DNA of 43,763 nucleotides from an uncultured Burkholderiales bacterium (GTDB lineage Bacteria; Pseudomonadota; Gammaproteobacteria; Burkholderiales; Burkholderiaceae_D), in the NCBI GenBank assembly GCA_937872165.1, contig CALMOR010000193.1:595-44357 (forward strand), in the 5' to 3' direction. Below are positions 1,796-19,753 of this stretch, in pieces. Every line of letters begins with the position of its first letter. The first letter of the stretch is position 1. Below the pieces are notes generated by a model. The model saw only the letters and a program-made list of their open reading frames with translations, had not been told where the DNA came from and did not search any database. The position numbers and the translations under genes were made by a program.

Positions 1796-3679
1796 ATGCC
1801 CACGAGCAATGACGTCACTTCCCCGCCATCGAGCGCTTGGGTGCGCTTTCTGCGGTCTTACGGGCCAACTCCCAACAACACCACGCTGTTTGACGAATAT
1901 GTCAGCGCCGCCCTGGGCAAGGCCAAGGTGCGCCCCATTCTTCTTTCAAGCCCGCTGCTTGACCAACTGAAAGCGCGAGCAGCCTCCGCAAGCGCCGGAT
2001 CCATCTTGATCGCCGGAACCGCGGGCGACGGCAAAACCTACCATTGCCGCAGCCTTTGGACGGAGATGGGCGGCCAGGACAAGGAGTGGGCGGCGGCGAC
2101 GACGTTGAAGGAGCTGCGCGTTGCCGATGGGCGGCTAGCGGTCTTTGTGAAGGACCTTAGCGAGCTGCCCAGCGGCGAGAGCGACCGCGCGCTCGCGATC
2201 TTGGAGCGCTCGGCGCTTGGCGACGACGACGAGGAGTTTGTCGTCATCGCGGCGAACCACGGCCAGATCCTCGATCGGCTCCGCGAGCTGGGAGCGCGGC
2301 AGGGCCGAGCGCATCCTCTGCGCAAGTCCATCCAGGACGCATTCCTGCTGCAATCGCCTCCCCCGGACCGGCTGGCGATTTTTGACCTGAGCCGGACCAC
2401 GAGCCGCGACTCCTTGGAGGAGGTCCTCTCGGCCGTCGCCGGCCATCCGGAATGGGAGAATTGCGCGCGCTGCCCGCTCAAGGATGAGGGGCGAATCTGC
2501 CCAATCTTCGAGAACCGCAAACGGCTGCTGCGCGAAAGCGATGGCGGAAAGCTCCCGCGCAGGCTTGGCGACCTGGTGGAGGTGGCGCGGCTCAACGGAT
2601 GGCATCTGCCCGTGCGCGATCTGCTCGCCCTCACGGCCAACATGATCTTGGGGCACCGCGACGCGAAGGAGGGGCTGATGGCTTGCTCCGACATCGCGCG
2701 GATCCAAGCGAATGGGGCGGAGGAGCGCGGAAGCCTGTATGCGAACATCTTCGGAGCCAATCTGCCTCGGCTTCGCGCGATGGACCGCGCCGTTTTCAGG
2801 GCTCTCTCCTCGTTTGGCATTGGCGAGGAGACCACCAATGTCGCCGATGGCCTGCTCGTCTATGGACGCGACGACGCGAGGCTGAGCCCTGCGTTCGAAA
2901 AGCTGGTCGAGGCGGACACGGTCTACGGGGCCACCGCGGGCTACCTATCGGCGCAGCGGCGCTACCTCGAAGGCGAGGAGGCCGCCAGGACCGAGGACGG
3001 CCCAGCGGAGTTTCTGGCGCGCTTGGCGGGGCAGCGGCGCAGGCTCTTCTTCACCCTGCCGGACGGGGACGTCGAATATCCGCACTGGGACATGACGGCG
3101 TTCAAGTCCGCTGGCGAGTATCTCGCGCTCACCGCGGCGCTGGTCGCCAAAAAGCCCATCAGCGAGGCGACGCGGACTCAGCTCGCGCGAGGACTCAACC
3201 GAGTCATGACCGGGCTCTTGATCGACAACGCCGAGCGGGTGTTCGTCGCCAGCTCGGGAGGCTTCACGCAGTCGCGCGTGAGCGTCCTGTGCGACACCGA
3301 GGCGCCTTCGCGTCGCCAGGATGGCAGGGGCATGCAGGTGAGGATCAACAGCCAGAGCGGCAAAGCCATGCTCGACATGGCGCTCGCCCCCGGAGCCGGC
3401 AACTCGGTCACCTTCGACCTAACTCCGATTCGCTTCGAGTTCCTGAGCCGCGTCGCCGAGGGCTCGCTTCCCGGCAGCTTCTCCAACGAATGCTTGGAGG
3501 ACTTGCTCGCATTCAAGGCGAAGCTATTGCGGCGGGCGGAAATTTTGAAAAAGGCGAGGCTTGCCAGCGGCGATGACGAGGGCGACGCGGACGATGGCGC
3601 CTTGACGCTCAACTTCATCGAGATAGAGCAAAGCGGGCACGGCTTCTCGCGGCCGGTGACGGTGAGGGCCGCCGCATGA
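1796..3679 (+). CDS. sspF: DptF/SspF-like AAA ATPase of a phosphorothioation-dependent restriction module
   Basis: 627 aa; Walker A GTAGDGKT; first gene of an F-G-H operon upstream of a 507-aa protein and a large FtsK/HerA-like protein. Confidence 0.75.
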   Translation: MPTSNDVTSPPSSAWVRFLRSYGPTPNNTTLFDEYVSAALGKAKVRPILLSSPLLDQLKARAASASAGSILIAGTAGDGKTYHCRSLWTEMGGQDKEWAAATTLKELRVADGRLAVFVKDLSELPSGESDRALAILERSALGDDDEEFVVIAANHGQILDRLRELGARQGRAHPLRKSIQDAFLLQSPPPDRLAIFDLSRTTSRDSLEEVLSAVAGHPEWENCARCPLKDEGRICPIFENRKRLLRESDGGKLPRRLGDLVEVARLNGWHLPVRDLLALTANMILGHRDAKEGLMACSDIARIQANGAEERGSLYANIFGANLPRLRAMDRAVFRALSSFGIGEETTNVADGLLVYGRDDARLSPAFEKLVEADTVYGATAGYLSAQRRYLEGEEAARTEDGPAEFLARLAGQRRRLFFTLPDGDVEYPHWDMTAFKSAGEYLALTAALVAKKPISEATRTQLARGLNRVMTGLLIDNAERVFVASSGGFTQSRVSVLCDTEAPSRRQDGRGMQVRINSQSGKAMLDMALAPGAGNSVTFDLTPIRFEFLSRVAEGSLPGSFSNECLEDLLAFKAKLLRRAEILKKARLASGDDEGDADDGALTLNFIEIEQSGHGFSRPVTVRAAA

Positions 3680-5199
3680 GGCAACGCATCGACGCGGTCG
3701 ACTTCGCGGTGGACGAGCACATCTGGGGCCATCGCCTCTACGACGAGCAGCTCCCGCATCTGACGTTCCTCGAATTCCTCGGCGTGCTCGGATCCAATGC
3801 GGACGCTCCCTTGTCCGCTCCGACAAGCGGAACGGTCCGCTACCGCCCTCAACGGCAGTTCCGGCTGCGAGGGCTCTTGTTCAACAACCCCTACGTCGAG
3901 TCGGTGCGCGATCGGCGCATTCCGGATGAGGAGAAGTGGGCGGAGTGGGGCGAGCGGTTCAAGCAGGACGCCACCAAAAACGATGACGAGGACATGGCTT
4001 ATCTGCGCGATGTCTTCGTCGAGTTCGACGACTTCGCGAAGGCCATCGAGCTGCTGCGCTCATCGGCCTTCGAGGCGCGAAGCAACAAGCGTTGGAGCTC
4101 CAAGTTCGTCTTCCCGTTTGGGCCCGATGCCCTCTACGAGGACCTGCGCATCGACAGCTCGGGGGGCGCGTCCAACGACCGGCGGTTTTTCGCGCGGACC
4201 GGCGAGTTGCTCTACTTGATGCTCAGCCGCTCCGCCAGGGGCCAAGAGCTCGGGCGCCTGCTCGTGCAACGGCTGTTCGATCGCTCGTCGACAATGAATC
4301 GGCTGGTCCGCACGCTCCAAGGTGAGCCGCAGGCCGCCGATGGCGCGCGCGATGTCGGATATTTGCCCTACGCCACGCACCCCCGCTTCGACCGCCTTTG
4401 CGAGGATTGGCTCGCGATCCTGCGAAGGGACATGCCGATCTACGATGCTTTGGAGCACCTGATCGCCTCGGCCGGGCTCAATCTGCTGTTGTATTTTTTG
4501 GAGTGCGCCAAGGCGCAGGCCCGGGACGCCGAGCCCGTCGAGATCATCTGCGAAATCGTGCGCGAGAGAACCAAGGTCCGGGCGCTCTCAGGCGACTCCT
4601 ACCAAGCCAACCAGGCAGCCTCGATCCGCGCCGTGCGCGCCGCTGTAGAGGGCATCAAGTTGACTGACGAGTGGCAAGCCGCCCTGGCCTCGGAATATCC
4701 AGGGGCCGCCTGCGCGGGCGTGCTGCGCGACAACTTCCAGTGGCCCTCGGCCGAGGCGACCGACGACGCGGACTATTCGCAAACGCCGGGCGACGAGCTT
4801 GTGAAAAAGCTGGGCGATTTGGCCGAGTCCCGCCACGAGCAGCATTTCGGCAAGATCCACTCGGCATGGTCGCGCTCGATCGGTTTGAGCTCGCGGCGCC
4901 AGGCTCGCCGCACGCGATACGCGCCCAACGACAAGCTGCTCAAGACGCTTGTTGTGGCCATCGTCGACGACCGCATGCAGTTCGATGACTTCTTGGCCGA
5001 GGCGCGCCGCCGCTATGGGCTGGTGATTGGAGACGTGGAGGGAGCGCACCTTGTCAAAGAGAAGCTGGTCGACCAAGAGGCGCTGAGCGAGAACCGCGGA
5101 AATTTGGAGGCGAGGCTGGCGAGCCTGGGCCTGCTGAGGCGTCTGTCGGACTCGTGCTCGTTCGTCGAGAATCCCTTCGGCGCGGAGGCGGCGCAATGA
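3676..5199 (+). CDS. sspG: DptG/SspG-like protein
   Basis: 507 aa; ATGA overlap with the upstream ATPase; position between F-like and H-like genes. Assignment is mostly contextual. Confidence 0.65.
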   Translation: MRQRIDAVDFAVDEHIWGHRLYDEQLPHLTFLEFLGVLGSNADAPLSAPTSGTVRYRPQRQFRLRGLLFNNPYVESVRDRRIPDEEKWAEWGERFKQDATKNDDEDMAYLRDVFVEFDDFAKAIELLRSSAFEARSNKRWSSKFVFPFGPDALYEDLRIDSSGGASNDRRFFARTGELLYLMLSRSARGQELGRLLVQRLFDRSSTMNRLVRTLQGEPQAADGARDVGYLPYATHPRFDRLCEDWLAILRRDMPIYDALEHLIASAGLNLLLYFLECAKAQARDAEPVEIICEIVRERTKVRALSGDSYQANQAASIRAVRAAVEGIKLTDEWQAALASEYPGAACAGVLRDNFQWPSAEATDDADYSQTPGDELVKKLGDLAESRHEQHFGKIHSAWSRSIGLSSRRQARRTRYAPNDKLLKTLVVAIVDDRMQFDDFLAEARRRYGLVIGDVEGAHLVKEKLVDQEALSENRGNLEARLASLGLLRRLSDSCSFVENPFGAEAAQ

Positions 5200-8100
5200 T
5201 GCTCACCGATCGGATCATCGGCCGGGTGGGCGCCGACATCCTTGGCCGCCGGCTCGCCGACGGCCGCCAAAGCGATGGGAGCGTCGCGGACTCCGCCGCG
5301 CTCTTCCGCCTCGACAAGCTGTCTTCGAGCCAGATAGCCGCGATCGTCAAGGAAATCCTGGCGAGCCCCGAGCTGCGCGAGAAGATCGACGTTCGCATTC
5401 CAGAGTCCCTGGTGCGCGGCGAGGGGTTGCCCGACGAGGCGTTGACCACGCAGAACGCGGGGGCGGTTCGAAACGCCGGAACGCAGAAAGAGGCTTTGCT
5501 CACGGCCAATGGCAACGAGAGCAACTTGGCCGACACCCTTGGGCACGTGACGGGGCTTGGCGCCAAAGAGTTGCGGGCCGCGCAGGACGCCTGGGTCGAC
5601 GCGGCCTGCCACGTCGGCGGGATCGCGCCCACCCTCGACGACCGGCAGATATTCCAATCGGCGCTCAAAGGCTTGGTTGGCGCTTCGGACCTCTCTCTTA
5701 TCCAACTAGGCGATCTCTGCGCGCTTGTTGGCGAGGCCATCGCCACGCGCGGCTACCCGATTCGAGAGGCGATCGGATTCTCGCTCCCGTGCGTCTCGCT
5801 TCCGCGCGACACGTCGTTTTTCTCGAACGCCAAGACTTACGCGCAAAACGTCGGCCCTTGGCGCAAAGCGTTCGAAAAGTTGTTCGCCAACCGCGCCCCC
5901 CTTCTGCAGCGGCTCCATGCGAACGGACAGCCGCTCGACGCCGACGACATGAAGGCGCGGATGGAGGAGAACGAGGCCTCCATCCCAGAGGCAGCCAGGG
6001 TGGCTCTCGATGCGTTTATCAATGCCCCGCAGGGAGACGACCGGGCGGCCAACGACGTTTCGCTGCTCGAATGGGAGCGCGATGGCGTCCACTTCATATT
6101 CGAGAAGCCCAAGGAGCGGCAGCTAGGCTTGGCCGACTCGACGCTTCGATTCTTCGACCACGATTGCGAGGACAGCGACGTTCTCGATGCCGTTGGGCGG
6201 CAACACCTCGAAGACTTGAAGGCGCGAGAAAAGCGATCGGACATTGGCAACGACGACGACGAGGCGTTTTTCGAGCTGCATCGCCGCTATCTCGAACAGA
6301 GCCCAAAGCTGCACGCCCGCTGGGAGAAGGCGGTCTTCGGAAAGCCGCTGGAGTGCCACGATTTTCTCGATGGCTTCGCCAACGTCGCCCAGCGGCTGAT
6401 CGCGTCCAACGGACCCGCCGCCGGCGAGCGATTCCTGCGCTTCACCGTGGCGAAGGGCCGAACTGAATGGCGCGAGCGCTTCAACCATGACGTCGGCGCC
6501 TACTTCTCCGCGATGTATCGAGGCGTGAAGGAGCTGATGGGGTCGAAGGTCGATTGGCGCGTCGAGCGCATGCGCACGAGCAACCTTCCAGACCCGCTGT
6601 TCCAGTATCGAGAGTTCTTCGCGGCTGAGAGGAAGATCCGCGGAGACAAGTTGAGGCCGGTCATCTCCCTTGCCCGCAACTCGATACAAATAAAGTTCGA
6701 CGTGTCGCTGGTCGAGCGCGTAGGCGACGAAGAGAGGATGTTGGAGAAGACTCAGCTCCTGTGGGGCTACCGGCCCGAGTCCATCGGCCTCTCGCTCGTC
6801 GAGGACATGGAGCGCCTGATCGAAAAGGGCGCGGTGGGCTGCACCGAGGTTCCGCGCCGCGTGGTCAGCAAGAAGGGCGGCGTCCAAAGCGTGTCGCTTC
6901 TGGACACCTCGACTCTCGAGGCGACTTTCTCGCGAGACGCCGGCTCGCTAGTCCCGCCCCCGAGCAAGATGAAAAGTCAGCGCGCGGAGATAAAGCGGCG
7001 CATAGATGAGCTGCGGGACGAGGGCCGGCTATCCAAGGAGCAGCGCGACGAGATTCGGACTGCCTGGGACGCCTTCGAGGCGGACTACATCCAAGGCATG
7101 TCGGACTTCGCGCGGACGGGCCTGCACGGCGAGGCGGTGTCCCGCCAAGCTGAATCATTCGCGGCCCTGCTGAGGGCGCTCGCCATCCATGCGCGCGGCG
7201 ATGTGTGCAGGTCGCGTCTGGTGGCCGAGGTCCTTACGATCGGCACGGTTCGCGTCGAGGGCGACCAAGCGTCCTTGATCATCCCACCTTGGCATCCGGA
7301 GCGCATGAAGGCGCTGTCGGTGAAGACGCGGCGAGTCGCCGCCCTCGTCACGCACATGCTTGGCGGAGAAAACGTCCTGTTTGGAGACCGCGGAATCTTC
7401 TTTCGCGAGTTCGCCGAGGAGCTAGCGCATCCGTTCTATCCGGAGGTCGCGGCGATGCAGCGATCCGGCGTCCCGGCCCTCGTGGCCGAAAGCAGCACCG
7501 TCAACGGATACAGCCTCTTCGAGCGCCCCGTGGGCGGCAACGACGACGCCCTGACGGACGTCGATCCGGCCTCCGCGGCCAAGCAGGTCCGCGAGCTTGT
7601 GGAGCGGTTTGTGGGACTGCAGCCGCATGAGGCGAACAACCTCAGCGTCTTGCTCTACAACGCGGATGCCGCGGAACTGCCTCTCGCGGTCGTGCGCGAG
7701 TTGGCCGGCTTGCAGACGGAGTTCGACTTCCAATGCAACGTGTCCGTGCGGCACCGCGATCCCGGCAAGCTTCGCCGGGTCTACGCCGAGCTCGTGACCA
7801 AAGGCGGCGACGACCCCGACATGGCGGTGGTGAGCGAGACCTCGTCGAATTTCATAGCCAAGCTCCGCATCGCGGTCGCGGCGTCCTCATCGACACCGCT
7901 GCGCTCCCACAATGGCTTCCGCCACTTCGACATCGCGTTTCTGCATGACGTCGTCTCGCGCACGGCGAGCGTCGAATGGATTGCGGTCGATTGGACCAAC
8001 GGCAGGCCGAGCTTGGAGCACGCCCCCTCGCGCTGGTCCTACCGAAGCGTCACCGGCGAAAACGAGCTGAAATCGACGACCTTCTTGACGTGTCCGCGCC

Positions 8101-10643
8101 AAACCGACTCGGGTTGGGCGTATGTCGCCGCCGTGGCCGCGGTCGTGCGCCAGACCGACGCCGCGGCTGATTCGCGAGTCCTTCCGTCAAGGCGCATATC
8201 GCTCCAAAACGAGGGGCTCAAAGCGACCATGGAGGACGCGCACGCGGTGGCCGAATGGGTCGCTACGTATGACGAGCTGCTGGACAAGAGGCAGCTTCAA
8301 GCCAACGGCGTGACCATCGTCCGATATCGGCGAGGGTCGACCAACGGTCGCAATATGATCGTGAGCTCGACCTCCGAGCTGCGCCTGCTTGGAGTCCTCA
8401 TTCGGCGGCGGCTCGACGAGCTCGGGCTCGCATTGGAAGCGCGGCAGCTCGACGAAGTCGCCTCGCGAGCCAAGAGCGACGCGCTTTCAATCTCAGGGGA
8501 CATCGTCCTGAGGGCGGCCAAGAGGGGCGTCTCGGCCGGCGAGATGCTTGGACTCGTCATGAGCCGCTACACGATCGAGCGCGAATTCCAATCGATCTGC
8601 GGAAGCGATTCCAAACAGTCTTTCAGCGTCTTCTTTCTTCTGGACGACTACGCGAGCTGGCTGGCGCAAAAGGAAAGCCGGATCGCCGACATTCTTGGCC
8701 TTTGCGTTGAGGAGAGAGACGACGGCATCCGTCTCCACATCGCCGTCGTCGAGTCGAAATATGTCCTGGCCGACGGCGCCGCCGAAGCGCGGCGCTCGTC
8801 CAAAGCGCAGCTTGTCGCGACCCTGTCGACTTTCCGAGCCGCGCTGTTCGGCGCGCCAGGGCGCCTCGATCGGGATGTATGGCTCGCGCGGCTCGCCGAT
8901 CTGCTTCTAGATGCCGACATACCGCCGGGCCGCTCTGGCCTCTTGGAGAGGGCTCGCGCTCATCTCAGGGATGGGGAGGCCAGCATCTCGCTGCGAGGCT
9001 ACTCGCAAGTGTTCATCCACTCGGCGGATGCCGCGGCCAGCCGCTCGGCATCTGAGCAAGTTCTCGTCGACGATACCGACAATGTCCAGGCCTGGCAGGA
9101 GGTCTACGACCGGCCAGAGCTCAGAGAGCTGGTCGAGGCCTATGCGCGCAAAGCGGATCCGGCCGGAGTCCGCTCCAAGCTTGGCCACAGCCAGCCGTGG
9201 CTTAGCGCGACGCCGCTGCCACCGGCAGCCCGCGTCGCCTGGACGTCCATGGTCGAGCGACTTGCGCCTGTTCCCCACGCCGACTCGCCGGCTGCCAGTC
9301 CTGTCGCCGCGGTGGGCTCGCAAGCAGACGAGGCAACGCGGACTGAAAGGCCAGATCAGGCACCAATATCCCCGTTGGTCGAGGCGCCGGTCGCGCCCCC
9401 GGCGCCAATGCCCCCAACGGCTGCCCCTCCGGCAGGCCAGAGCGCGCCCATGGACTCGTCGTTCGCCGCGTTGATCGCTTCGCGTGCGACGGCGGCGACG
9501 GGCGCAGTCGACGAGAGAGAGGCGTGGGCGGAGGATTCGTCCAAGAAGCTCAAAGCCGCGCTGAATAGCTACGGACTGCAGGCCGCGATACTCGGGACGC
9601 GACTGACGCCCAACGGATGCTTGGTGAGGTTGGCAGGCTCGGATCGCCTCCGGGTCGAGGACATCGAGGCGAAGCGCACTCAGCTGTTGACGACCCACGC
9701 CATCAGCTTGGTGACGGTGCAGCCAAAGCCGGGCGAGATCGTGGTCACCATCGCAAGCCCGAAACGACAGTCCGTCTCGCTATGGGACCTTTGGGCCCGC
9801 AGAAGCCTCAATCGGAACGCCGCCGGGATCAACACGTCCTTTGTGCTCGGCCTGCAAGAGATCAGCGGATCGTTGCTTTACTTGAATCTGGGCGCCGAGT
9901 TCGGCGGGCTTGCGTCGCACGAGCCTCATTCGCTTGTGGCTGGGGCGACTGGCAGCGGCAAGTCCGTGCTGATTCAGGCGATCCTTCTTGACATCGCTGC
10001 GACCAACCCGCCAAGCCTAGCGAAGATTGTCTTGATCGACCCGAAGATGGGCGTCGACTACTCCGCATTGGAAGACTTGCCCCACATGCGGGAGCCGATC
10101 GTCACGACGAAGGAGCGGGCGACTCTGCTGCTAGCCGAGCTTGTCGAGGAGATGGAATCCCGGTATCGCTTGTTCGCCGCCGCCCGGGCCCGCGACCTCA
10201 CGACCTTCAACGCAAAGGCGTCCCCCGAGGATCGCCGGCCGATGCTCTTCCTTATCCATGACGAGTTCGCGGACTGGATGCTCGACGACGGCTACAAGGG
10301 CGCTGTGAGCGCGACGGTGCAGCGACTGGGCGTCAAGGCGCGAGCCGCGGGCATTCATTTGATCTTCGCTGCGCAGCGGCCCGACAAAGATGTCATGCCA
10401 ATGCAGCTGCGCGAGAACCTTGGCAATCGCCTCATTCTCAAGGTCACGAGCGAAGCAACCTCGAAGATTGCCTTGGACCGGTCGGGCGCCGAGCTGCTGC
10501 TTGGAAAAGGACACCTCGCGGCGAAGCTCAACGGCGAGCAGGGCTTGGTCTTTGCTCAAGCGCCCTTTCTATCTGATCAAGATATAGAGGCAGCCGTTCG
10601 GGCCATTCAAGACGATTCTTTAGCGATACCGCACCTGTCATGA
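5196..10643 (+). CDS. sspH: DptH/SspH-like protein with C-terminal FtsK/HerA-type motor
   Basis: About 1815 aa from ATG 5196 (overlaps sspG stop). C-terminal Walker A GATGSGKS, Walker B-like MLFLIHDEF, FAAQRPDKDVMP. Large N-terminal region and Pro/Ala linker precede the motor. Confidence 0.78.
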   Translation: MMLTDRIIGRVGADILGRRLADGRQSDGSVADSAALFRLDKLSSSQIAAIVKEILASPELREKIDVRIPESLVRGEGLPDEALTTQNAGAVRNAGTQKEALLTANGNESNLADTLGHVTGLGAKELRAAQDAWVDAACHVGGIAPTLDDRQIFQSALKGLVGASDLSLIQLGDLCALVGEAIATRGYPIREAIGFSLPCVSLPRDTSFFSNAKTYAQNVGPWRKAFEKLFANRAPLLQRLHANGQPLDADDMKARMEENEASIPEAARVALDAFINAPQGDDRAANDVSLLEWERDGVHFIFEKPKERQLGLADSTLRFFDHDCEDSDVLDAVGRQHLEDLKAREKRSDIGNDDDEAFFELHRRYLEQSPKLHARWEKAVFGKPLECHDFLDGFANVAQRLIASNGPAAGERFLRFTVAKGRTEWRERFNHDVGAYFSAMYRGVKELMGSKVDWRVERMRTSNLPDPLFQYREFFAAERKIRGDKLRPVISLARNSIQIKFDVSLVERVGDEERMLEKTQLLWGYRPESIGLSLVEDMERLIEKGAVGCTEVPRRVVSKKGGVQSVSLLDTSTLEATFSRDAGSLVPPPSKMKSQRAEIKRRIDELRDEGRLSKEQRDEIRTAWDAFEADYIQGMSDFARTGLHGEAVSRQAESFAALLRALAIHARGDVCRSRLVAEVLTIGTVRVEGDQASLIIPPWHPERMKALSVKTRRVAALVTHMLGGENVLFGDRGIFFREFAEELAHPFYPEVAAMQRSGVPALVAESSTVNGYSLFERPVGGNDDALTDVDPASAAKQVRELVERFVGLQPHEANNLSVLLYNADAAELPLAVVRELAGLQTEFDFQCNVSVRHRDPGKLRRVYAELVTKGGDDPDMAVVSETSSNFIAKLRIAVAASSSTPLRSHNGFRHFDIAFLHDVVSRTASVEWIAVDWTNGRPSLEHAPSRWSYRSVTGENELKSTTFLTCPRQTDSGWAYVAAVAAVVRQTDAAADSRVLPSRRISLQNEGLKATMEDAHAVAEWVATYDELLDKRQLQANGVTIVRYRRGSTNGRNMIVSSTSELRLLGVLIRRRLDELGLALEARQLDEVASRAKSDALSISGDIVLRAAKRGVSAGEMLGLVMSRYTIEREFQSICGSDSKQSFSVFFLLDDYASWLAQKESRIADILGLCVEERDDGIRLHIAVVESKYVLADGAAEARRSSKAQLVATLSTFRAALFGAPGRLDRDVWLARLADLLLDADIPPGRSGLLERARAHLRDGEASISLRGYSQVFIHSADAAASRSASEQVLVDDTDNVQAWQEVYDRPELRELVEAYARKADPAGVRSKLGHSQPWLSATPLPPAARVAWTSMVERLAPVPHADSPAASPVAAVGSQADEATRTERPDQAPISPLVEAPVAPPAPMPPTAAPPAGQSAPMDSSFAALIASRATAATGAVDEREAWAEDSSKKLKAALNSYGLQAAILGTRLTPNGCLVRLAGSDRLRVEDIEAKRTQLLTTHAISLVTVQPKPGEIVVTIASPKRQSVSLWDLWARRSLNRNAAGINTSFVLGLQEISGSLLYLNLGAEFGGLASHEPHSLVAGATGSGKSVLIQAILLDIAATNPPSLAKIVLIDPKMGVDYSALEDLPHMREPIVTTKERATLLLAELVEEMESRYRLFAAARARDLTTFNAKASPEDRRPMLFLIHDEFADWMLDDGYKGAVSATVQRLGVKARAAGIHLIFAAQRPDKDVMPMQLRENLGNRLILKVTSEATSKIALDRSGAELLLGKGHLAAKLNGEQGLVFAQAPFLSDQDIEAAVRAIQDDSLAIPHLS

Positions 10644-11137
10644 CCATTTCAAAAACAGTGGCGGAAGCAGTGAAAGATCTAGCTTTCCAAGAATCGCATC
10701 TCGTGCCGGTGATGTTTTATCCGGACACATGGAAGCACGTGGCGGCGCCGCCGCGAAAGTGGGAAAGAGAAGCATTTCCACCAAAGCCGCGCAAGCGAAT
10801 ACCCAAGAAACCTGGGGTCTACATCTTTGTGCTAATGCGCGAGATATTCGGATTTCCACACGGCAACGCCATATTTTATATCGGGAAAGCAACAAGCCTC
10901 TACGAACGCATCGGCGCCTACTTGGCTGACGTTGACCGACACTTGCTGCAAACCAAAAGGCCTCTTGCATGGCGTATGCTAAATCAATGGGACGGCCACC
11001 TGCTATATTTCTATACAACAACTCAAGACACGAAATCGGCAGAATCACTTGAAACTGAACTAATAGAAGCGTTCCGGCCGCCCTTCAATAAAAGGTTTGA
11101 AGCAACGACAAGTCAGTTTGTGAGAGCTTTTCTATGA
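10640..11137 (+). CDS. GIY-YIG domain protein
   Basis: 165 aa; PGVYIFVLM...FYIGKATSLYERIGAYL and downstream SLETELIEAFRPPFNKRF fit the GIY-YIG fold; ATGA overlap with sspH stop; low-GC block. Confidence 0.75.
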   Translation: MTISKTVAEAVKDLAFQESHLVPVMFYPDTWKHVAAPPRKWEREAFPPKPRKRIPKKPGVYIFVLMREIFGFPHGNAIFYIGKATSLYERIGAYLADVDRHLLQTKRPLAWRMLNQWDGHLLYFYTTTQDTKSAESLETELIEAFRPPFNKRFEATTSQFVRAFL

Positions 11138-12339
11138 CAACGAGCAGATTGCTTCCTTCGTTACGAGGAATCGTGGGCGATTGGAGCTATTACGTCACAA
11201 CATTGACGTTTCGCGACGTGACTGCGTTAATTAAGTCAACAGACGAGATTCACGAACGAATCCGGCTAGCAGACTGGATTCAGAGAGTTGCGATTGACGC
11301 GCACGCAAAAGACATTGCAGCCTATATTACAGAAACTCCGCAACGTTTTCTCGGGTCGCTTGTAGTCGGCGTCTACGGAGGTGCGCCAAACTGGACCTCA
11401 TTGAACGTGCGCGTTCCGGAGGACGAGGGAATTACGCCTGAACAAGTTGAGAATTTAGAGGGACGGATTGGTCTGCTTCATTTTTCCGGAGAGGAAAAAC
11501 TCTTTGCGATTGATGGACAACTTCGGGTAGCCGGGATCAAGCAGGCCGTCAAGCAAGCCGACGGCAGCGATTGCCCGCTGCTTGACGAGACTGTTAGCGC
11601 GATATTTGTAGCGCATGACCCCAAAACCGAAGAAGGAAAGCGCAGGACAAGAAGACTATTTACGACGGTAAATAAAAAAGCAAAGATCGTATCTAAGGCA
11701 GCTCGGATCGCACTCGACGAAGATGACGGATACGCCATTGTGACGCGTCGAATGATCGACGAGCATTGGCTTTTCTCGGATGACAAAAAATACGTTTTAT
11801 ACAGCACGGGTGGATCGCTTCCAGCGCTTGACACAACATCTATCACAAGCGTAGTAGGCCTATATGAGATTATTAAAGATATCACCTTGGTCGACATCGC
11901 CTTTGGCAAGAAGAGGCCAATGGATGCTGATATAGCTGATGCGCTCGCTCAAGCAAAGTCCTACTTTGACACTCTGCTTGAGTCTATTCCAGAATATTCG
12001 TCAACCTTTCTGAAGGAAAAACATAAGCCAGGGTATTACAGGAGCCCCACAAGAAATCACTTGCTTTTCAGGCCAATTGGTCAGCGAACATTTGCGCGCG
12101 CCACGCGTTTGCTCGTAAGCCGAGGGAAGTCAACTTCTGCGGCAGTCGAAGCGCTAAGTAAAGCTCCGCTCTACCTACAAAATGATGTCTGGCATCACAT
12201 TATGTGGGACCCAGTTTCATCGACGATGATCACGAACAAGATCGTAATTGCAGAGGCGCAGCTCCTCCGACTTGCAGGCCAACCGGTTCGCAATAAGTCA
12301 AGTGCGGCAAAGCTAGATCATCTGTTGAAATCCGTCTAG
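11134..12339 (+). CDS. DndB-like / DGQHR-domain protein
   Basis: 401 aa; motif LFAIDGQLRVAGIKQAV (DGQ-R) and overall DndB-like pattern; ATGA overlap with the GIY-YIG gene. Confidence 0.7.
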   Translation: MTTSRLLPSLRGIVGDWSYYVTTLTFRDVTALIKSTDEIHERIRLADWIQRVAIDAHAKDIAAYITETPQRFLGSLVVGVYGGAPNWTSLNVRVPEDEGITPEQVENLEGRIGLLHFSGEEKLFAIDGQLRVAGIKQAVKQADGSDCPLLDETVSAIFVAHDPKTEEGKRRTRRLFTTVNKKAKIVSKAARIALDEDDGYAIVTRRMIDEHWLFSDDKKYVLYSTGGSLPALDTTSITSVVGLYEIIKDITLVDIAFGKKRPMDADIADALAQAKSYFDTLLESIPEYSSTFLKEKHKPGYYRSPTRNHLLFRPIGQRTFARATRLLVSRGKSTSAAVEALSKAPLYLQNDVWHHIMWDPVSSTMITNKIVIAEAQLLRLAGQPVRNKSSAAKLDHLLKSV

Positions 12340-12356
12340 GAGGTCTAGCTATTTGC

Positions 12357-13196
12357 CTACTTATGGCAAACAAGGCAGGCGCCGCCGCCCTCGTCCTCGC
12401 CATAGATCTCGTCGATATCCTCAACGCGATCGACTGGTCTAAGCGGGTTCACCGGGCGCGCGCCCAAGTCGCGTTGCCGTCTCCGCTCATGGTCCGAGAC
12501 GATTTGGATCACACGAGCCGGTTTTTCGAGATCGGTGAGCGGCTCGCCATGCGACCAGGTGAACGGCGAGCCATGGTCCAGGGCGTTCTTTTCGAGTTGC
12601 TTGGCCTCTTCAAACGCTTCCGGATGTCGATCTCGAAGCCTCACCCACTCGATCTTCTGCTGGAAGAAACAGAACGTGCACCCGCTTCGCGAGCGCCAAT
12701 CGTAGTATTTCGGCAGTCCGACGCCCGACGACTCGAGGATGTCCATGACGCCGCGCTTGTCGATGCCCGACTCCCGGAATGGAAGGCGAACGGACAGGTT
12801 CTCGCTCTTCGAGACGTAGCCCTCGCGAAACTCCTCGTCCGAACGGATCGCGACGTAGCTGGTCACCTTCTCGCCAGAAGTGAGCATGGGGCGAATCCAC
12901 TGCTCGAAGGGTTTCAGCTTCAATTGCTTCGTGCACCAGCGCGTCTGCGCCGATGGCAGAAAGTGTCCGTATTCCCGAAGCCAAAAATCGAAATCGCGGC
13001 GCGGGTTGAGCCGCAGGATGGGCTTGCCTAGGAACCCTTCTAGCCGGCCCAGGAACTCATATACCTCGGGCAGCTCTTTGCCGGTGTCGGTGAAGAAATA
13101 CTCGACGTCGAGCTCTGGATGCGCCTGCCGGACGAAGACGGCCAAGGCCGCGCTGTCCTTGCCCCCTGAGATCCCCAGGACGTGCCGATCAGCCAT
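12357..13196 (-). CDS. sspD: DndC/SspD-like PAPS-reductase-family ATP pyrophosphatase
   Basis: Start reset to ATG 13196 (MADRHVLGISGGKDSAALAVFVRQ; SGGKDS PP-loop). Cys motifs CTFCFFQQK and ACLVCHK. Overlaps the sspC stop. Confidence 0.82.
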   Translation of the reverse strand: MADRHVLGISGGKDSAALAVFVRQAHPELDVEYFFTDTGKELPEVYEFLGRLEGFLGKPILRLNPRRDFDFWLREYGHFLPSAQTRWCTKQLKLKPFEQWIRPMLTSGEKVTSYVAIRSDEEFREGYVSKSENLSVRLPFRESGIDKRGVMDILESSGVGLPKYYDWRSRSGCTFCFFQQKIEWVRLRDRHPEAFEEAKQLEKNALDHGSPFTWSHGEPLTDLEKPARVIQIVSDHERRRQRDLGARPVNPLRPVDRVEDIDEIYGEDEGGGACLVCHK

Positions 13197-16100
13197 GCGA
13201 AGCCTCCGTCTGTTCGCGTTCGTCGACGGCGAGGCGCATGCCCGCGCGAGCCAAAATCGCGAGCAGCACGTCGGTGCCAAAGCCCTCGGCTTTGAGGCGC
13301 CCGGCAAGGTCGTCGCCCATTGTGTCCACCGCCGCGCGGTGCCGGTCCGTGATCGAGAATTGGCGTGACACCACGCGCGTCTCGGAGCCCGAGCCGATCA
13401 CCACGGCAAACGCCTCGCTTGTCGGCGTCCGGCCCGTGACCGAGACGAACGCCTCGGCCTGCCGAAAACGCAGAGCAGCTTTGGAAATGTCGAGTAGCGC
13501 GGCATCGATGTCGCGGTCGTTCCAGTCGCGAGGCGGCTTGTTGGCCGCCAAGCTAAGGATGCCCTCAACGCTCTCCCTGCTTCCATCATGCGAGGCCAGC
13601 CTGGTGGCGAACGCGTCCTGCCGCAGGTCGCCCGTCACGCCCGCGACCGCCTCGGCCCTAGCCCTCAATCGGTCGAGCCGGTCGGCCGGAGCATCGAGGG
13701 CATCGAGCATGGCAGCCTCGATTCTATCCAGCAAAGCGCCGTAAGCGCCCGCGAGCTCCTTGATCGGAGCCCGCAGGGCCTCGACGTATGAGGAGCCGGA
13801 AGCGCTCTCCAACAGCGCGGCCAAATCGACGAACAGGACTTTGTGCGGATCGCTAGCTTTGAGCAGCGTGTCGCGGACGGCCCTGGCCGATGCGCTAAGG
13901 CTCCGAGTGCGCTGGCTCCAAGCCGGCAAGCCAAAGACCAACGCGACAAGGCCGCGAGCGGCCTCAAGCGGATCGCGAGCCTCGGACGACGCTCCGACCT
14001 CTCCAAGAATCTTCGAGATGCCCGCGAGGATGCTCGTCTTGGCGTCGTCGATGTGTATCCAGCGCATCGAGAAGCGCCGCTCGTCTTGGAGATACTCGTC
14101 GATGTCGGCGTCCGTCACCCTCGGTATGAAGATGCCCTCTTTGTAGACGGCAACGTTCGCTTTGTGCGCGAGCAGAAACGCCGCGAGAATGACCGGCGCG
14201 ATACCGTCGCGGACTCCGAATGGAGGGGCCGCCCAAAGCGCGTGGATATCCGCGAGCCCCACTCGCCTTCCCGAGTCGGTGAACATGGCTCGCGTGGCCT
14301 CCCACAGTTTTGCGAACGACAAGGCCTCGGACTCGTCAGGAGCGGCGAAGCCCCACCGCCCCTCTGCGCCAGCCCGATGCAGGCCGGTCGCTTTGAGCAG
14401 CGTCTCGTATAGCCCGCGCTCCGCGGGGAACCCCTCGATTCCGAGATGCGCCTCGCCCTCGTTGGCGACCATCCTATGCAGCAGATCGCGCCGAGCCTTC
14501 ACGCTATTGCTCGACGGGCGATCCCTGTTGACAAGCTCGCTCCATACCTCGGGAGCCGATCCGTAGGTTTGATCGGCCAAGGTCGACGCCAGCGGCGCGA
14601 GCCTCGCGCCCGACTCGACTTCGTCACCGCCCCCAACGAACCACTGCGCGTTGGCCACTCCCAACCTCAGCTGCTCTTCCAAATTAGCCCGGACCGAAGA
14701 CAGGCGGGCTTGGACTTCGCGCCTTGCGACGGCATCGCCGCCAAGCTCATGGCGCGACTGCACATGCTGCAAGGCCAGCAGATCCGCGCCAAGGGATTCG
14801 ATCTTGGCGTGGTTGCGAGGCACGGCCACCGCGACCGGCCAAGGCTGCGCGCGAGCGGACTGTTGGCACATGCGCCGAGCCGCATTGTCGCCCACGCCTC
14901 TGGCGGGCAACGCCATTAGAAAGAGGCCGAATTCTCCCTTTCGCGGCTTGAAAGCCGAGGCCAGCCGATGCGCGTCTTCGAGGCGGCAAAGAGCCATCTC
15001 CATCCATCGCATGGTCCCCGTCTCGTGATAGTGGCGCTTCGCGACCACGGGGTGCAGATTCGCCAGATTCGAAAGGAGGTCGAAGTCGACGCCGGGAAGC
15101 GTCGCGAGAGATTGCCCGACCGCGAGTTCGATGTTGAAGTCGCTACCCTCGAAGACTGACCAAGCTCCGATGTGCTTTTTGAAAAGCGCCACGCGCCACG
15201 CTGAGAGCTGTTCGAGCGCTCGCTTGATTTTTTCTCGCGACTCGCCAAAGAAAACGGCGCCGAGCACATCTGAATCGGCCGCCAAGCCCGACCCGTTGCG
15301 GAACAAATCGATGACCGCGATGCTCTTGATCAGCGCGACGTGCAGCGGGTCCGCCGTCCTCGCCTCAGTCCGCTCGACGGCCTCCGCCGCCTGCGCCCAC
15401 CGATGGCCATCGGGGGACGCGAGGATCGCCGGCTCCAAGTTCGAGCGAAGGTAGCCCCAGTAGTCGTGCGGGCGATACCAACTCGCGTCGGAGAGCCCCG
15501 TCTCATCGAGAAAGGCGCGAAACCCATGCGGCTCGACGGACGCGAGGAAGCCAAAGACGCTGCGCTCGTTTTGCCCGAACTGCCGCTTCGAGATGGGGCC
15601 GAGCAGCGCGGCCATGGCCGGGTGAAACGGCCAGCAGGCCGCTAAGCTTCTCGCGAAAGATTCGCCGACGGCGGGTCGTCGAGTTCTGATGGATGACGCG
15701 ATGAGATTAGCCGCCTGCGCAGCGATGCGAGGCATCCGATCGGCCTCGATGGCCCGTCCGAGCAGCTCGACGACCTCGTCGCTCGCCGCGACCAGTGGAA
15801 TGTCCGAGTAGCGGCCCTGCACCTTTGCCCAGTCGTCCCGCGTGTCGATTCCGAGCCGAGCGGCGTATTGGCTAAACGATTGGTGGAGGACGCCGACGAC
15901 GATGATCTTCGCCGGACTTCGCGCGGCGGCCTCGGCGAGCTCTTGGAAGAAGTAGACATCCTCGCCAAGGCCAAGAGCGGAGGCTTCGAGGAACTTTCCC
16001 ATCTCGTCGATGGCGATGAGTATTCCATCGTGGCTTCCGGCGGCGGCAGCGCGAAGCAGCTCCGAAACAAGCGCCGCGGCCGAGACCTTGCGCGAGCTAT

Positions 16101-16530
16101 CGCGCAGGCGACCGAAAAGTCGAAGGCTGTCCGCCAATTCGTTGACCACGCTGCCTCGTTTGCCAACGATGGGCAGGACCATCCACCCGCGCCGCACGGG
16201 AAAAGCTTCGTCGAAGGCTGGCAGATCGTCGAGGCGCAGCAGGGACCGAGCTTTCGAGCGCAGGGCTTCATCGGGAGCCAAGGCGCTGGCAAGCGCGACG
16301 ACTAGCGACGATTTGCCGCCGCCAAACGGCCCCGTCCAAGTGAAAGCTCGCTGGTTGTTGTCGATCAGCTGCTTCGACATGCCGTCGAGGACCGCTCGAG
16401 CGGTTGCGTGGCAAATGTAGCCGGCGAGAGCCTCCGGGCGCCCAAGGTCGGCGTCGATGCGGATCGAACGCTGATAGTGCCGAGAGACGCTTACGACGTC
16501 TGACAGCTTCGCGTCGATGGCCTTAGCCAT
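13189..16530 (-). CDS. sspC: SspC-like large ATPase
   Basis: 1113 aa; Walker A GPFGGGKSS; between DUF4007 and PAPS-reductase genes with short overlaps on both sides. Confidence 0.75.
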   Translation of the reverse strand: MAKAIDAKLSDVVSVSRHYQRSIRIDADLGRPEALAGYICHATARAVLDGMSKQLIDNNQRAFTWTGPFGGGKSSLVVALASALAPDEALRSKARSLLRLDDLPAFDEAFPVRRGWMVLPIVGKRGSVVNELADSLRLFGRLRDSSRKVSAAALVSELLRAAAAGSHDGILIAIDEMGKFLEASALGLGEDVYFFQELAEAAARSPAKIIVVGVLHQSFSQYAARLGIDTRDDWAKVQGRYSDIPLVAASDEVVELLGRAIEADRMPRIAAQAANLIASSIRTRRPAVGESFARSLAACWPFHPAMAALLGPISKRQFGQNERSVFGFLASVEPHGFRAFLDETGLSDASWYRPHDYWGYLRSNLEPAILASPDGHRWAQAAEAVERTEARTADPLHVALIKSIAVIDLFRNGSGLAADSDVLGAVFFGESREKIKRALEQLSAWRVALFKKHIGAWSVFEGSDFNIELAVGQSLATLPGVDFDLLSNLANLHPVVAKRHYHETGTMRWMEMALCRLEDAHRLASAFKPRKGEFGLFLMALPARGVGDNAARRMCQQSARAQPWPVAVAVPRNHAKIESLGADLLALQHVQSRHELGGDAVARREVQARLSSVRANLEEQLRLGVANAQWFVGGGDEVESGARLAPLASTLADQTYGSAPEVWSELVNRDRPSSNSVKARRDLLHRMVANEGEAHLGIEGFPAERGLYETLLKATGLHRAGAEGRWGFAAPDESEALSFAKLWEATRAMFTDSGRRVGLADIHALWAAPPFGVRDGIAPVILAAFLLAHKANVAVYKEGIFIPRVTDADIDEYLQDERRFSMRWIHIDDAKTSILAGISKILGEVGASSEARDPLEAARGLVALVFGLPAWSQRTRSLSASARAVRDTLLKASDPHKVLFVDLAALLESASGSSYVEALRAPIKELAGAYGALLDRIEAAMLDALDAPADRLDRLRARAEAVAGVTGDLRQDAFATRLASHDGSRESVEGILSLAANKPPRDWNDRDIDAALLDISKAALRFRQAEAFVSVTGRTPTSEAFAVVIGSGSETRVVSRQFSITDRHRAAVDTMGDDLAGRLKAEGFGTDVLLAILARAGMRLAVDEREQTEASHG

Positions 16531-17446
16531 AAGCCCTCTCGATCATCCTCGCGCCGAGCTTGCGCGCGTCGATCTGCTGTCGATGCACTTGCCGAAGTCC
16601 GGCGGTGTCCGTCCAAGACAGCGCTCCGCTCGTCAGGCTTTCCAAGGCGAGCAGCCGCTCCGCTATCGACTCCTCGTCAAGCTTGAAGACGCGTCCCGGA
16701 GATCCTTCGGCATAGGCTAAATTTTCGAACGCGAGCGAGCTGAGGCCGGCCGCTGATCGGTCCCAATAATCGAGGAGCGCGTATGCGAACAGTCCATCAT
16801 GCAGCGTGGGCTTCGGTCCGCGCCGAAAAGCAAATTGTCCCTTGTGCTCCTCGTAGAGCAGGCCAAGCTCGCCGAGCAAGGGCTCGGCGTAATCCTCCGG
16901 CGAGCCTCCGGCCGCGCGCGGCGCGTAGCTGCGAAGGCAGGTCTCCAAATCGCGCGACAGGGTGGAGGCGGACAGCTTGCGCTTCGCGTCGAGCGAGCTT
17001 GCGAAGGCGGCTAGCGCAGGTTCCAACTCATCTCGGGAGAACGTGGACGCCGTCACATGGTTGAACAGCCAATACCACGTGGTCGCCCGATTGCCCTTGC
17101 CGGCAAGCTGCCAGTGCGCGTGCCAAGCGGTAGAAGGGTTCTCTGAATACGGATCGAGACCGCCGTCGCGCAGAACTTTTTGCGCGGTGTCGGTGACCGC
17201 GTAAGCGTCTTCCGACTCTTCGCGCAGCACATCGCATGCGAGCGCCCAATGGCGTATCGACGCCACCATATTCTTGCCCACGCCGAACTTCGCGATGGCA
17301 TCTTCACTGGAAAACGTAGCCTTCGACACCTTGCCAGCGTCCGAGCTATCGAACGCCTTCTTCAACCACATCTGCCGAAGCGGAAATGTCTCGTGCCCGG
17401 AAAAATGAGCCGGGAGTCCGGTCGGAGGCGCCGCGGTCGAAGTCAT
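16523..17446 (-). CDS. sspB: DUF4007 protein, SspB-like
   Basis: 307 aa; typical DUF4007 start PAHFSGHETFPLRQMWLKKAFD and FGVGKNMVASIRHW; first gene of the minus-strand operon. Confidence 0.82.
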   Translation of the reverse strand: MTSTAAPPTGLPAHFSGHETFPLRQMWLKKAFDSSDAGKVSKATFSSEDAIAKFGVGKNMVASIRHWALACDVLREESEDAYAVTDTAQKVLRDGGLDPYSENPSTAWHAHWQLAGKGNRATTWYWLFNHVTASTFSRDELEPALAAFASSLDAKRKLSASTLSRDLETCLRSYAPRAAGGSPEDYAEPLLGELGLLYEEHKGQFAFRRGPKPTLHDGLFAYALLDYWDRSAAGLSSLAFENLAYAEGSPGRVFKLDEESIAERLLALESLTSGALSWTDTAGLRQVHRQQIDARKLGARMIERAYG

Positions 17447-18049: not shown

Positions 18050-18711
18050 CTAGTCGAGGATGCGGCTTTCCCGCTTCGTCGCCGCATGGACTTGGTTGCC
18101 CTCTCCGGTCCTGCCAAGCCATACGATCAGCACAACAAAGGCCACCGACAGGATCGCGAAGATCGCGTATTTATTCGAGATGGTCGTATCCGGCGACAGG
18201 CTTCTTAGCCAACCGATCGGCCATGCCGCGTGGAGCGCGAGCAACACCCATACCGCCAGGATGAACACGTTGACGAGCTGATTGATCCGGGAGACCGACA
18301 TCTTGGCCGGCCCCGTCAAAACTCTCTTGATGAGATTCTCGCCTTGGGGACGCAGCACCGTCTTGTAGAGGGGCCGGTCACTTTGTCCTCCAACATATCG
18401 ACGTGCGCCTCCCAGTTCGCCTGCCATTGCTTGCTGCCCTTGTCCACCATGAACCAAGCGAATGTGAGCACGCATCCGATGCACGCGAGGATGAACGCTA
18501 GGAAGTCGCGCTCAACGATGGCCGTGCCGGAAGAGAGGATGGCGAAATAGCCTGCGAAGGTTGCGGTGATCAGGCCCCAAAAATACGTCGCTCTCTTCCA
18601 ATAAAGCTCGATTTCAAATTGTCGGTTGTCGCGAGCGTGGTCCAAGGCCGCGACATACTTGGGCACGTCGTTTTGACCCGTCGCGGAAAAATCCTGTTCG
18701 GGCTCCGCCAT
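18050..18711 (-). pseudogene. RipA-family-like membrane protein, interrupted by a 1-nt frameshift
   Basis: From Met 18711: MAEPEQDFSATGQNDVPKYVAALDHARDNRQFEIELYWKRATYFWGLITATFAGYF...DKVTGP, then continues in another frame as LYKTVLRPQGENLIKRVL...FAILSVAFVVLIVWLGRTGEGNQ; frame change at G-run 18370-18373. Confidence 0.5.
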
Positions 18712-19518
18712 GCCCGCCTTGTAGGCCTCGGCCTCGAAGATCGCCTTGATATCGCTGTCGGTGAAGGGCTTGTAAGACTCGGCCTTCGCCAGCCGCTCGG
18801 ACTTGGTCTGCATGAACAGGCCCGAGACGGGGCTAACCGGCGAGGCGTTGTAGAGGCCGTGGGCCAGCGCGTATTTGAAAAGGTCCGAAATCGACAGCAG
18901 CTTGTTGTCGATCGTCTTGGCCTTCTGCCCCGCCGCCAGGCACGCCGACTTGTAGCCGACCATGACGGCCTTGGTGATCGAGTCGATCTCCACGTCCTTC
19001 GCGATGCGACGCTGGAAATCCTTGTAGTGCAGCTCCTTCATGTAGACGGTGCGCGCGCCGTTCTTCTGCCTGCGCTCGGCGAGCCACTTCTCCGCGACCG
19101 ACGAGAGCATCTCGGATTTGAGCGTGGCCGAAGGCGGCGCCTCGGCTGCCGCGCGCCGCGGCGGGTCCTTCGGCAGGCCCCATGGGCCGATCTTCTCGAT
19201 CGCCTCCAATAGCCGACGATGGTCTGCTTCTCCGTCGGCTTTTAGGATGCCGCGCGAGAGGTCGATCTCATAGCGCCTGATCGCGCCGAGGTCGAGGTTC
19301 AAGTCTTCGAGCTTAGGGTTCTTCGAGCCCATCGGCCACGCGCCTCGCGATGCGCGGGCTGATGCCACCGCGTCGTTGATCTTGGCGGCAATCATATGAG
19401 CCGCGAGCGGATCCTTGGTGCCCAAGCTGACGCGTTGGTCGCGCTCGCCTGAGCGAAGCCGATAGCACCAAACGCCGCAGCGATTGCGGTATAGCCGAGC
19501 TACTTTGAGGTAGGGCAT
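18712..19518 (-). pseudogene. Tyrosine recombinase/integrase, N-terminal and core-binding part only; catalytic domain missing
   Basis: Starts at ATG 19518 (MPYLKVARLYRNRCGVWCYRLRSGERDQRVSLGTKD) next to the tRNA; reaches KPFTDSDIKAIFEAEAYKAG and then runs in frame into the RipA-like start; no R..HxxR..Y catalytic region follows. Confidence 0.7.
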
Positions 19519-19552
19519 GGGTGGCGCACCAGGTGGCGCACCGCCGGAAATG

Positions 19553-19588
19553 AAAAACGCCGCAAATCGTTGAACTTGCGGCGTTTTT
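19553..19588. terminator. Bidirectional intrinsic terminator
   Basis: AAAAACGCCGCAA - 10 nt - TTGCGGCGTTTTT, perfect 13-bp stem with T/A-rich ends. Confidence 0.75.
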
Positions 19589-19596
19589 ACGAAGGG

Positions 19597-19670
19597 TTGC
19601 GGGGACAGGATTTGAACCTGTGACCTTCGGGTTATGAGCCCGACGAGCTGCCAGACTGCTCCACCCCGCG
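19597..19670 (-). tRNA. tRNA-fMet (initiator, CAT anticodon)
   Basis: Reverse complement CGCGGGGTGGAGCAGTCTGGCAGCTCGTCGGGCTCATAACCCGAAGGTCACAGGTTCAAATCCTGTCCCCGCAA closely matches known bacterial initiator tRNAs. Confidence 0.95.
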
Positions 19671-19753
19671 GCCGGATTGTATGCGATGTCGGGGGCTTCG
19701 CCAAATCGGCTGTCGCCGCAGGTCCCTTCGAAGCCTTGCGGTATATTCGCCCG

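What the first reader, a model, noticed from the sequence alone, without database searches (positions are those of the whole stretch)
10640..12339. GIY-YIG + DndB/DGQHR gene pair coupled to the end of an SspFGH-like operon: candidate new component of a PT defence system
Seen: two genes follow sspH with ATGA overlaps at 10640 and 11134, so the operon is F-G-H-GIY-DndB. The block is strikingly lower in GC than its neighbours (23/60 G+C at 11641-11700 versus 43/60 at 3001-3060), suggesting a separately acquired cassette placed in translational register. Known: GIY-YIG folds are nucleases, and DndB is a regulator in Dnd systems. SspBCD-SspFGH as I know it consists of those subunits only. Inference: the pair may add a dedicated nuclease (effector or nick processing) plus a PT or DNA sensor/regulator.
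Basis: partly seen in the sequence, partly recalled or inferred. Interest (0 to 1): 0.85.

Follow-up and report, generated by a model that had tools for sequence, protein, structure and literature searches.

The report
GIY-YIG–DGQHR add-on of phosphorothioate defence
Two overlapping genes at the end of a bacterial DNA-sulfur anti-phage defence operon encode an apparently intact DNA-cutting enzyme and a DndB-like partner; the same pair turns up beside DNA-sulfur defence genes in very different bacteria, so it is probably an overlooked exchangeable add-on weapon of these systems, but nobody has tested it.

Summary
The window holds SspF-G-H (+) followed by a GIY-YIG gene (10640-11137) and a DGQHR/DndB-like gene (11134-12339), joined by ATGA overlaps, convergent with SspD-C-B. 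The pair is a sharp low-GC island (GC3 0.50 against 0.80-0.84 in SspFGH). All GIY-YIG catalytic residues are present and invariant in 13 of 13 relatives. The pair was found, almost always overlapping by 1 or 4 bases, at phosphorothioate (PT) loci of Pseudomonadota, Nitrospirota, Riflebacteria and Bacteroidota, with SspBCD or with Dnd/Pbe cores. Pair-type DGQHR proteins are a separate subfamily: canonical DndB coexists in the same Dnd loci. Close relatives of the window locus (SspD up to 86% identical) carry SspE or a GHKL-ATPase gene pair at that position, and more distant ones nothing, so the sspH-sspD gap is an exchangeable slot. Only a minority of SspFGH or SspBCD loci carry the pair, and it nearly always sits beside another restriction-type module. 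Best reading: an accessory two-subunit, PT-gated nuclease, a split analogue of SspE/DndI (ParB-like DGQxR NTPase plus nuclease). PT sensing, NTPase activity and nicking are inferred, not shown. New variant of a known kind.

The parts
1796..3679 (+). SspF
   Evidence: PADLOC SspF E 7e-234
3676..5199 (+). SspG
   Evidence: PADLOC SspG E 4e-217
5193..10643 (+). SspH with C-terminal FtsK/SpoIIIE motor
   Evidence: PADLOC SspH E 0; PF01580 E 1e-35
10640..11137 (+). GIY-YIG nuclease subunit, 165 aa; G59-x-Y61, Y80-x-G82, R90, E138, N150 present
   Evidence: PF01541 E 8e-7; residues G59, Y61, Y80, G82, R90, E138 invariant in 13/13 relatives; top structure match R.Eco29KI
11134..12339 (+). Pair-type DGQHR (DndB-like) protein, 401 aa; DGQLR at residues 127-131
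   Evidence: PF14072 E 2e-24, TIGR03187 above cut-off; profile-profile match to canonical DndB 99.5%
12357..13202 (-). SspD, PAPS-reductase-like sulfur transferase
   Evidence: PADLOC SspD E 5e-137
13189..16530 (-). SspC ATPase
   Evidence: PADLOC SspC E 0
16523..17446 (-). SspB (DUF4007), the nickase of PT modification
   Evidence: PF13182 E 2e-90; PADLOC SspB E 4e-116
10640..12356 (.). Variable cargo slot between sspH and the convergent sspD
   Evidence: Relatives carry SspE, a HATPase gene pair, other genes or nothing here

Best explanation
The pair is an accessory, horizontally exchanged restriction module of phosphorothioate (PT) defence systems. The two proteins are made from overlapping genes and probably form one complex: the GIY-YIG subunit cuts or nicks DNA, and the DGQHR subunit (ParB/sulfiredoxin-like NTPase family) binds NTP and DNA and gates the nuclease according to PT marks, so that PT-marked self DNA is spared and unmarked phage DNA is damaged. 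It works as a split counterpart of the single-chain SspE and DndI proteins (DUF262 with DGQQR motif plus HNH nuclease), which likewise accompany FGH systems. Shown: gene coupling, intact catalytic residues, linkage to PT loci, exchange in the slot. Inferred: complex formation, NTPase activity, PT gating, nicking, anti-phage effect.
For: Linkage: a DGQHR-profile search not conditioned on PT genes, in about 785 proteobacterial genomes, gave six loci at 130 bits or more. Five lie at PT loci (window, L066, L067 with SspBCD; L049 with DndBCDE; L068 with DndC); the sixth (L069) is a contig end with a cysteine desulfurase and a DUF262-HNH gene. Further PT-linked copies: L003 and L004 (one operon, D-GIY-DGQHR-F-G-H; L004 also B-C upstream), L007, L008, L009, L087, L002 next to a PbeC/DndD end. 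Coupling: overlap of 1 or 4 bases in 10 of 12 loci. Catalytic residues invariant in 13/13. Slot: SspE in L006 and L047, a HATPase pair in L005, L045, L046, nothing in L010, L090, L077, although SspD is 68-86% identical to the window's in the close relatives. Profile gap between pair-type (at least 264 bits) and canonical DndB (at most 64). Precedent: DndI is co-transcribed with dndFGH, has a DGQQR-dependent PT-stimulated ATPase and nicks DNA (PMC11662687); SspE likewise (PMC13251355). Both papers place DUF262 in the ParB-like superfamily; PMC11662687 names DndB and sulfiredoxin as members.
Against: No biochemical or phage data. The pair nearly always sits beside another restriction-type module (FGH; helicase-HATPase-PLD; PbeA-type helicase; DndI-type DUF262-HNH), so it may assist or regulate rather than restrict. 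Profile comparison of DGQHR with SspE/DUF262 found only the DGQ motif (3% probability). The fold match to sulfiredoxin is weak (E 1, probability 0.54) and the GIY model is low-confidence (pLDDT 57). No PT-binding element was identified. L055, a viral contig, has a truncated GIY plus DGQHR with no PT gene in the 18 kb held.
Confidence: 0.5

Rival explanations
1. Back-up suicide effector: the GIY-YIG enzyme is held inactive by the DGQHR protein and released when the PT system is attacked or fails, degrading cell DNA, much like a toxin-antitoxin pair.
For: Gene order nuclease then DGQHR with overlap; the pair sits beside other restriction modules; PMC10853773 proposes this role for stand-alone URI (GIY-YIG) genes at the edges of Dnd loci.
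Against: In five SspBCD loci (L003, L004, L007, L066, L067) the pair lies directly after sspD inside the operon rather than apart at the edge on the other strand; the slot it occupies in the window holds the PT-sensing effector SspE in two relatives.
Confidence: 0.22
2. Modification helper or regulator: the DGQHR protein controls PT level as DndB does, and the GIY-YIG enzyme makes or processes nicks used for sulfur insertion or for SspFGH action.
For: [quoted passage not shown] in five loci the pair follows sspD directly.
Against: Canonical DndB is already present in the Dnd loci that carry the pair (L009, L049, L071, L087); the pair is absent from most SspBCD loci, so modification does not need it; SspB is the known nickase of the Ssp system (PMC8092258). 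The DndB operator TACG-N10-CGTA is not enriched in the window (12 one-mismatch hits, 7.5 +/- 2.6 expected) and no hit lies within 2 kb of the pair.
Confidence: 0.15
3. Unrelated defence-island passenger that merely landed next to SspFGH.
For: GC contrast and exchange in the slot; one copy in a viral contig without PT genes in the 18 kb held (L055).
Against: The same pair lies at PT loci across at least four phyla and with two kinds of PT core; identity of DGQHR and SspD among the seven Ssp loci is correlated (rho 0.69; 66 of 5040 permutations as high).
Confidence: 0.08

Closest known systems
SspE (SspABCD-SspE)
   Same: PT-associated; ParB-like NTPase domain with a DGQxR motif joined to a nuclease; occupies the same sspH-sspD slot in two close relatives (L006, L047); compatible with SspFGH.
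   Different: Single chain with DUF262 and HNH; here two proteins with a DndB-type DGQHR domain and a GIY-YIG nuclease. No detectable profile similarity beyond the motif.
DndI (IscS-DndBCDE-DndI)
   Same: Add-on effector encoded with an FGH restriction operon; DGQQR NTPase plus nickase.
   Different: DUF262-HNH single chain in Dnd systems; in L087 and L049 a DndI-like gene and the GIY-DGQHR pair are present together.
DndB / DGQHR family
   Same: PF14072 and TIGR03187 membership; profile-profile E 2e-23 with canonical DndB.
   Different: Far below the DndB equivalog cut-off (44.8 against 328 bits); paralogous subfamily with its own signatures (GDWxYY, SGEEKLFAIDGQHR, RTRRLFTTLN, ALDED) and with a GIY partner in every pair-type locus that could be read.
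URI/GIY-YIG genes near Dnd loci (PMC10853773)
   Same: GIY-YIG genes at PT loci were noted there.
   Different: No DGQHR partner, no Ssp loci and no operonic pairing appear in the passages read.

Membership tests
SspBCD-SspFGH system | SspB, C, D, F, G, H all present | tested here: met
   PADLOC matches for all six
SspBCD-SspFGH system | Cysteine desulfurase (SspA or IscS) | not tested
   None seen next to the window locus; the genome was not searched
GIY-YIG nuclease | Profile match above the curated cut-off | tested here: met
   29.7 against 22.6 bits; the relatives tested fall below the cut-off
GIY-YIG nuclease | GIY, YIG, catalytic Arg and metal-binding Glu | tested here: met
   G59, Y61, Y80, G82, R90, E138 invariant in 13/13
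GIY-YIG nuclease | Nuclease activity | not testable with these tools
   Needs purified protein
DGQHR domain family | TIGR03187 / PF14072 above cut-off | tested here: met
   75.8 against 58.9 and 86.7 against 29.1 bits
DndB (equivalog TIGR03233) | Score above the equivalog cut-off | tested here: not met
   44.8 against 328 bits; coexists with canonical DndB in L009, L049, L071, L087
DGQHR_dnd_1 (TIGR04172) | Score above cut-off | tested here: not met
   18.5 against 450 bits
SspE | DUF262 plus HNH protein matching an SspE model | tested here: not met
   No PDLC02790 match in the window's genome
PT-sensing effector (SspE/DndI type) | PT-stimulated NTPase | not testable with these tools
   Arg of the DGQxR motif (R131) is retained; activity unknown
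ParB/sulfiredoxin fold | Structural match | tested here: inconclusive
   Best plausible match sulfiredoxin-ATP 3cyi, probability 0.54, E 1

The most novel reading that the evidence does not exclude
GIY-YIG plus pair-type DGQHR is a hitherto undescribed two-subunit PT-gated restriction module that plugs into Ssp, Dnd and Pbe systems alike, and is one of the additional SspBCD restriction partners predicted to explain why 83.9% of sspBCD loci lack SspE and SspFGH.
Probability: 0.35. Interest if true: 0.75.

Novelty: new variant of a known kind. Interest (0 to 1): 0.6.

Why it matters
The discoverers of SspFGH left open whether the 83.9% of sspBCD clusters without SspE or SspFGH have other restriction partners (PMC8092258). 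This pair is a concrete candidate that makes the question testable. The GIY partners tested in related loci all fall below Pfam's cut-off, and the annotated ones are called hypothetical, so the module is easily overlooked. It would show that the ParB-like DGQxR switch can be coupled to a nuclease other than HNH, and in trans. The exchangeable slot between sspH and sspD also gives a way to find further PT effectors.

Tried and rejected
(1) I first took the pair to be the only restriction candidate in L007, L066 and L067, since SspF and SspE are absent there. Scanning the neighbours showed a helicase-HATPase-PLD cassette in L007 and L066 and a PbeA-type helicase with a PbeC-like ATPase in L067, so I dropped that claim. 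(2) Using SspH as marker failed: its FtsK motor matches housekeeping FtsK in nearly every genome; SspF and SspB were used instead. (3) Sequence homology of DGQHR to SspE/DUF262 was tested and not found beyond the motif. (4) A DndB operator near the pair was looked for and not found. (6) E. coli complete genomes have no close copy of the Salmonella pair. (7) The other copy of the tRNA-Met 3' end, to define the island, was not found in the window or in contig bases 1-20000. (8) The solved-structure sequence search gave no DndB relative.
Full report
Observation. SspF, SspG and SspH (PADLOC) run on the + strand from 1796 to 10643; a GIY-YIG gene (10640-11137) and a DGQHR/DndB-like gene (11134-12339) follow, each start codon overlapping the previous stop as ATGA. 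SspD, SspC and SspB converge on them from 17446 to 12357. The GC figures are exact. Over 1.7 kb the pair is the lowest-GC stretch of the window, with edges inside the last ~25 codons of sspH and directly after the DGQHR stop. GC3 is 0.49-0.50 against 0.80-0.84 for sspFGH. In L066 the pair has a GC3 (0.70-0.72) close to its neighbours (0.71-0.74), so low GC3 is not built into these genes; recent arrival in the window's lineage is the natural inference.

Are the proteins what they look like? The GIY protein passes the Pfam cut-off, its profile finds UvrC GIY-YIG domains in the PDB, weakly (best E-values 0.02-0.06), and its low-confidence model has R.Eco29KI as best match with I-TevI and T4 EndoII further down. 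G59, Y61, Y80, G82, R90 and E138 are invariant in 13 of 13 relatives. By textbook knowledge of I-TevI and UvrC these are the catalytic positions. The DGQHR protein passes PF14072 and TIGR03187 but is far below the DndB equivalog. Its profile is clearly related to canonical DndB. In the window the motif is DGQLR; the arginine that is essential in SspE (R133) and DndI (R87) is kept. Its model gives only a weak sulfiredoxin match, in line with published placement of DndB, DUF262 and sulfiredoxin in one ParB-like superfamily (PMC11662687).

Where else is the pair? A scan of species genomes with the DGQHR protein gave three loci, all with a GIY gene directly upstream: L004 (Riflebacteria) is one operon B-C-D-GIY-DGQHR-F-G-H, L003 (Nitrospira) the same from D onward at a contig end, and L002 (Ekhidna) follows the end of a PbeC/DndD-type gene. 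A second Ekhidna copy (L095) follows a fragment weakly similar to MAD8/DndH. Plasmids add L007 (SspA-B-C-D-GIY-DGQHR without FGH), L008 (GIY-DGQHR-F-G-H convergent with D-C-B) and L009 (next to DndBCDEA). Genome surveys add L049, L066, L067 and more divergent pairs L068, L069 and L071. A Salmonella integrative element (L087) has GIY-DGQHR-DUF262/HNH facing dndBCDE, with no DndFGH in the 33 kb shown. In 10 of 12 loci the two genes overlap by 1 or 4 bases. Canonical DndB loci L051-L054 have no GIY gene and score at most 64 bits with the pair profile, against at least 264 for pair-type proteins. Divergent variants lie between (about 90-160 bits).

How common is it? Drawing evenly from 386 alphaproteobacterial genomes and 369 genomes of the window's own class gave 18 genomes with SspB. 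In their loci the pair is in 3 (one being the window), SspFGH in 5, SspE in 1, a HATPase gene pair in 1, and a cassette matching helicase, HATPase and PLD genes in about 4 (profile-tested in L076; L072, L074 and L082 judged by size and order); L066 has it as well as the pair. Of 28 plasmid records with most of SspH, three near-identical Rhizobium records carry the pair. It is therefore a minority accessory, not a standard SspFGH subunit.

The slot. In convergent F-G-H/D-C-B loci the gap between sspH and sspD holds SspE (L006, L047), a GHKL-ATPase gene plus a ~650 aa partner (L005, L045, L046), a 481 aa gene (L089), a deoxyribosyltransferase-like gene (L079), small genes (L091) or 5-24 bases only (L010, L077, L090, L008). 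The window's SspD is 86% identical to that of L005, whose slot holds the HATPase pair, while the window's DGQHR is at most 45% identical to any copy found. Cargo is thus exchanged while the core is kept. Across the seven Ssp loci carrying the pair, DGQHR and SspD identities are nevertheless correlated (rho 0.69, 66 of 5040 permutations as high), which suggests some long-term co-inheritance.

How it probably works. Two single-chain PT effectors are known that join a ParB-like DGQQR NTPase to an HNH nickase: SspE, where PT recognition and GTP hydrolysis license the nuclease (PMC13251355), and DndI, where PT-stimulated ATPase releases the enzyme from self DNA (PMC11662687). DndI is co-transcribed with dndFGH, and SspE is compatible with SspFGH (PMC8092258). 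The GIY-DGQHR pair has the same two kinds of ingredient in two coupled genes, is found at the same kinds of loci and in one case sits in the very slot that holds SspE in relatives. I therefore commit to a two-subunit PT-gated nuclease that adds to the main restriction module. The steps not shown are complex formation, NTP hydrolysis, PT recognition, cleavage and phage protection. The main weakness is that the pair nearly always has another restriction-type module beside it, which leaves room for a back-up suicide role (proposed for URI genes at Dnd loci in PMC10853773) or a helper role.

Novelty. No paper found in the searched library describes this pair (preprints and most subscription journals are not held). 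GIY-YIG genes near Dnd loci were mentioned in general terms, and DGQHR proteins near PT genes have NCBI equivalog families, whose cut-offs this one does not meet. PADLOC has no model that matches the GIY subunit. I rate it a new variant of a known kind: a PT restriction add-on built from different parts. The open question it touches is explicit in the literature: 83.9% of sspBCD clusters lack both known restriction partners.

Noticed in passing
L076:9154-13509, L066:10379-14799, L007:11477-15901; by size and order also L072, L074, L082: A recurring three-gene cassette (PbeA-like DEAD helicase, MzaB-like HATPase, DrmC-like PLD nuclease) next to SspBCD, about as frequent as SspFGH in the SspB census; another candidate SspBCD restriction partner.
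   Followed up: partly
L005:15477-19855, L045:10561-14909, L046:12752-17100, L078:10108-14382: A GHKL/HATPase protein (~790 aa) with a ~650 aa partner of unknown family in the sspH-sspD slot or right after sspD; no dedicated PADLOC model matches.
   Followed up: partly
L089:13456-14904; L079:9322-10410: Other single-gene cargo in the sspH-sspD gap: a 481 aa protein without any family match and a nucleoside-deoxyribosyltransferase-like protein.
   Followed up: no
window 18316-19860 (-) and tRNA-Met 19595-19670 (-): An ORF downstream of tRNA-Met whose N-terminal part reads like a tyrosine recombinase (by eye) and whose C-terminal part matches the 8xMP membrane family: possibly an integrase remnant fused to another gene, marking an island edge at the tRNA.
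   Followed up: partly
L068:6401-10946; L069:5745-10417; L071:6632-8793; L070:10967-12739: Divergent GIY-DGQHR variants (short ~107-109 aa GIY, or 564-590 aa DGQHR) at DndC/DUF262-HNH or Dnd-CxC loci; no GIY detected in L070.
   Followed up: partly
L055:9705-14022 (viral contig): A GIY-DGQHR pair with a truncated GIY in a phage-like contig behind a DNA methylase-like gene, followed by 102 and 813 aa genes without family; no PT genes in the 18 kb held.
   Followed up: partly
L087:15312-24225 (Salmonella Infantis SARB27, filed among phage records): An ICE-borne Dnd locus carrying GIY-DGQHR plus a DndI-like DUF262-HNH gene opposite dndBCDE, with no DndFGH in the stretch shown; an enterobacterial homologue of the pair.
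   Followed up: partly
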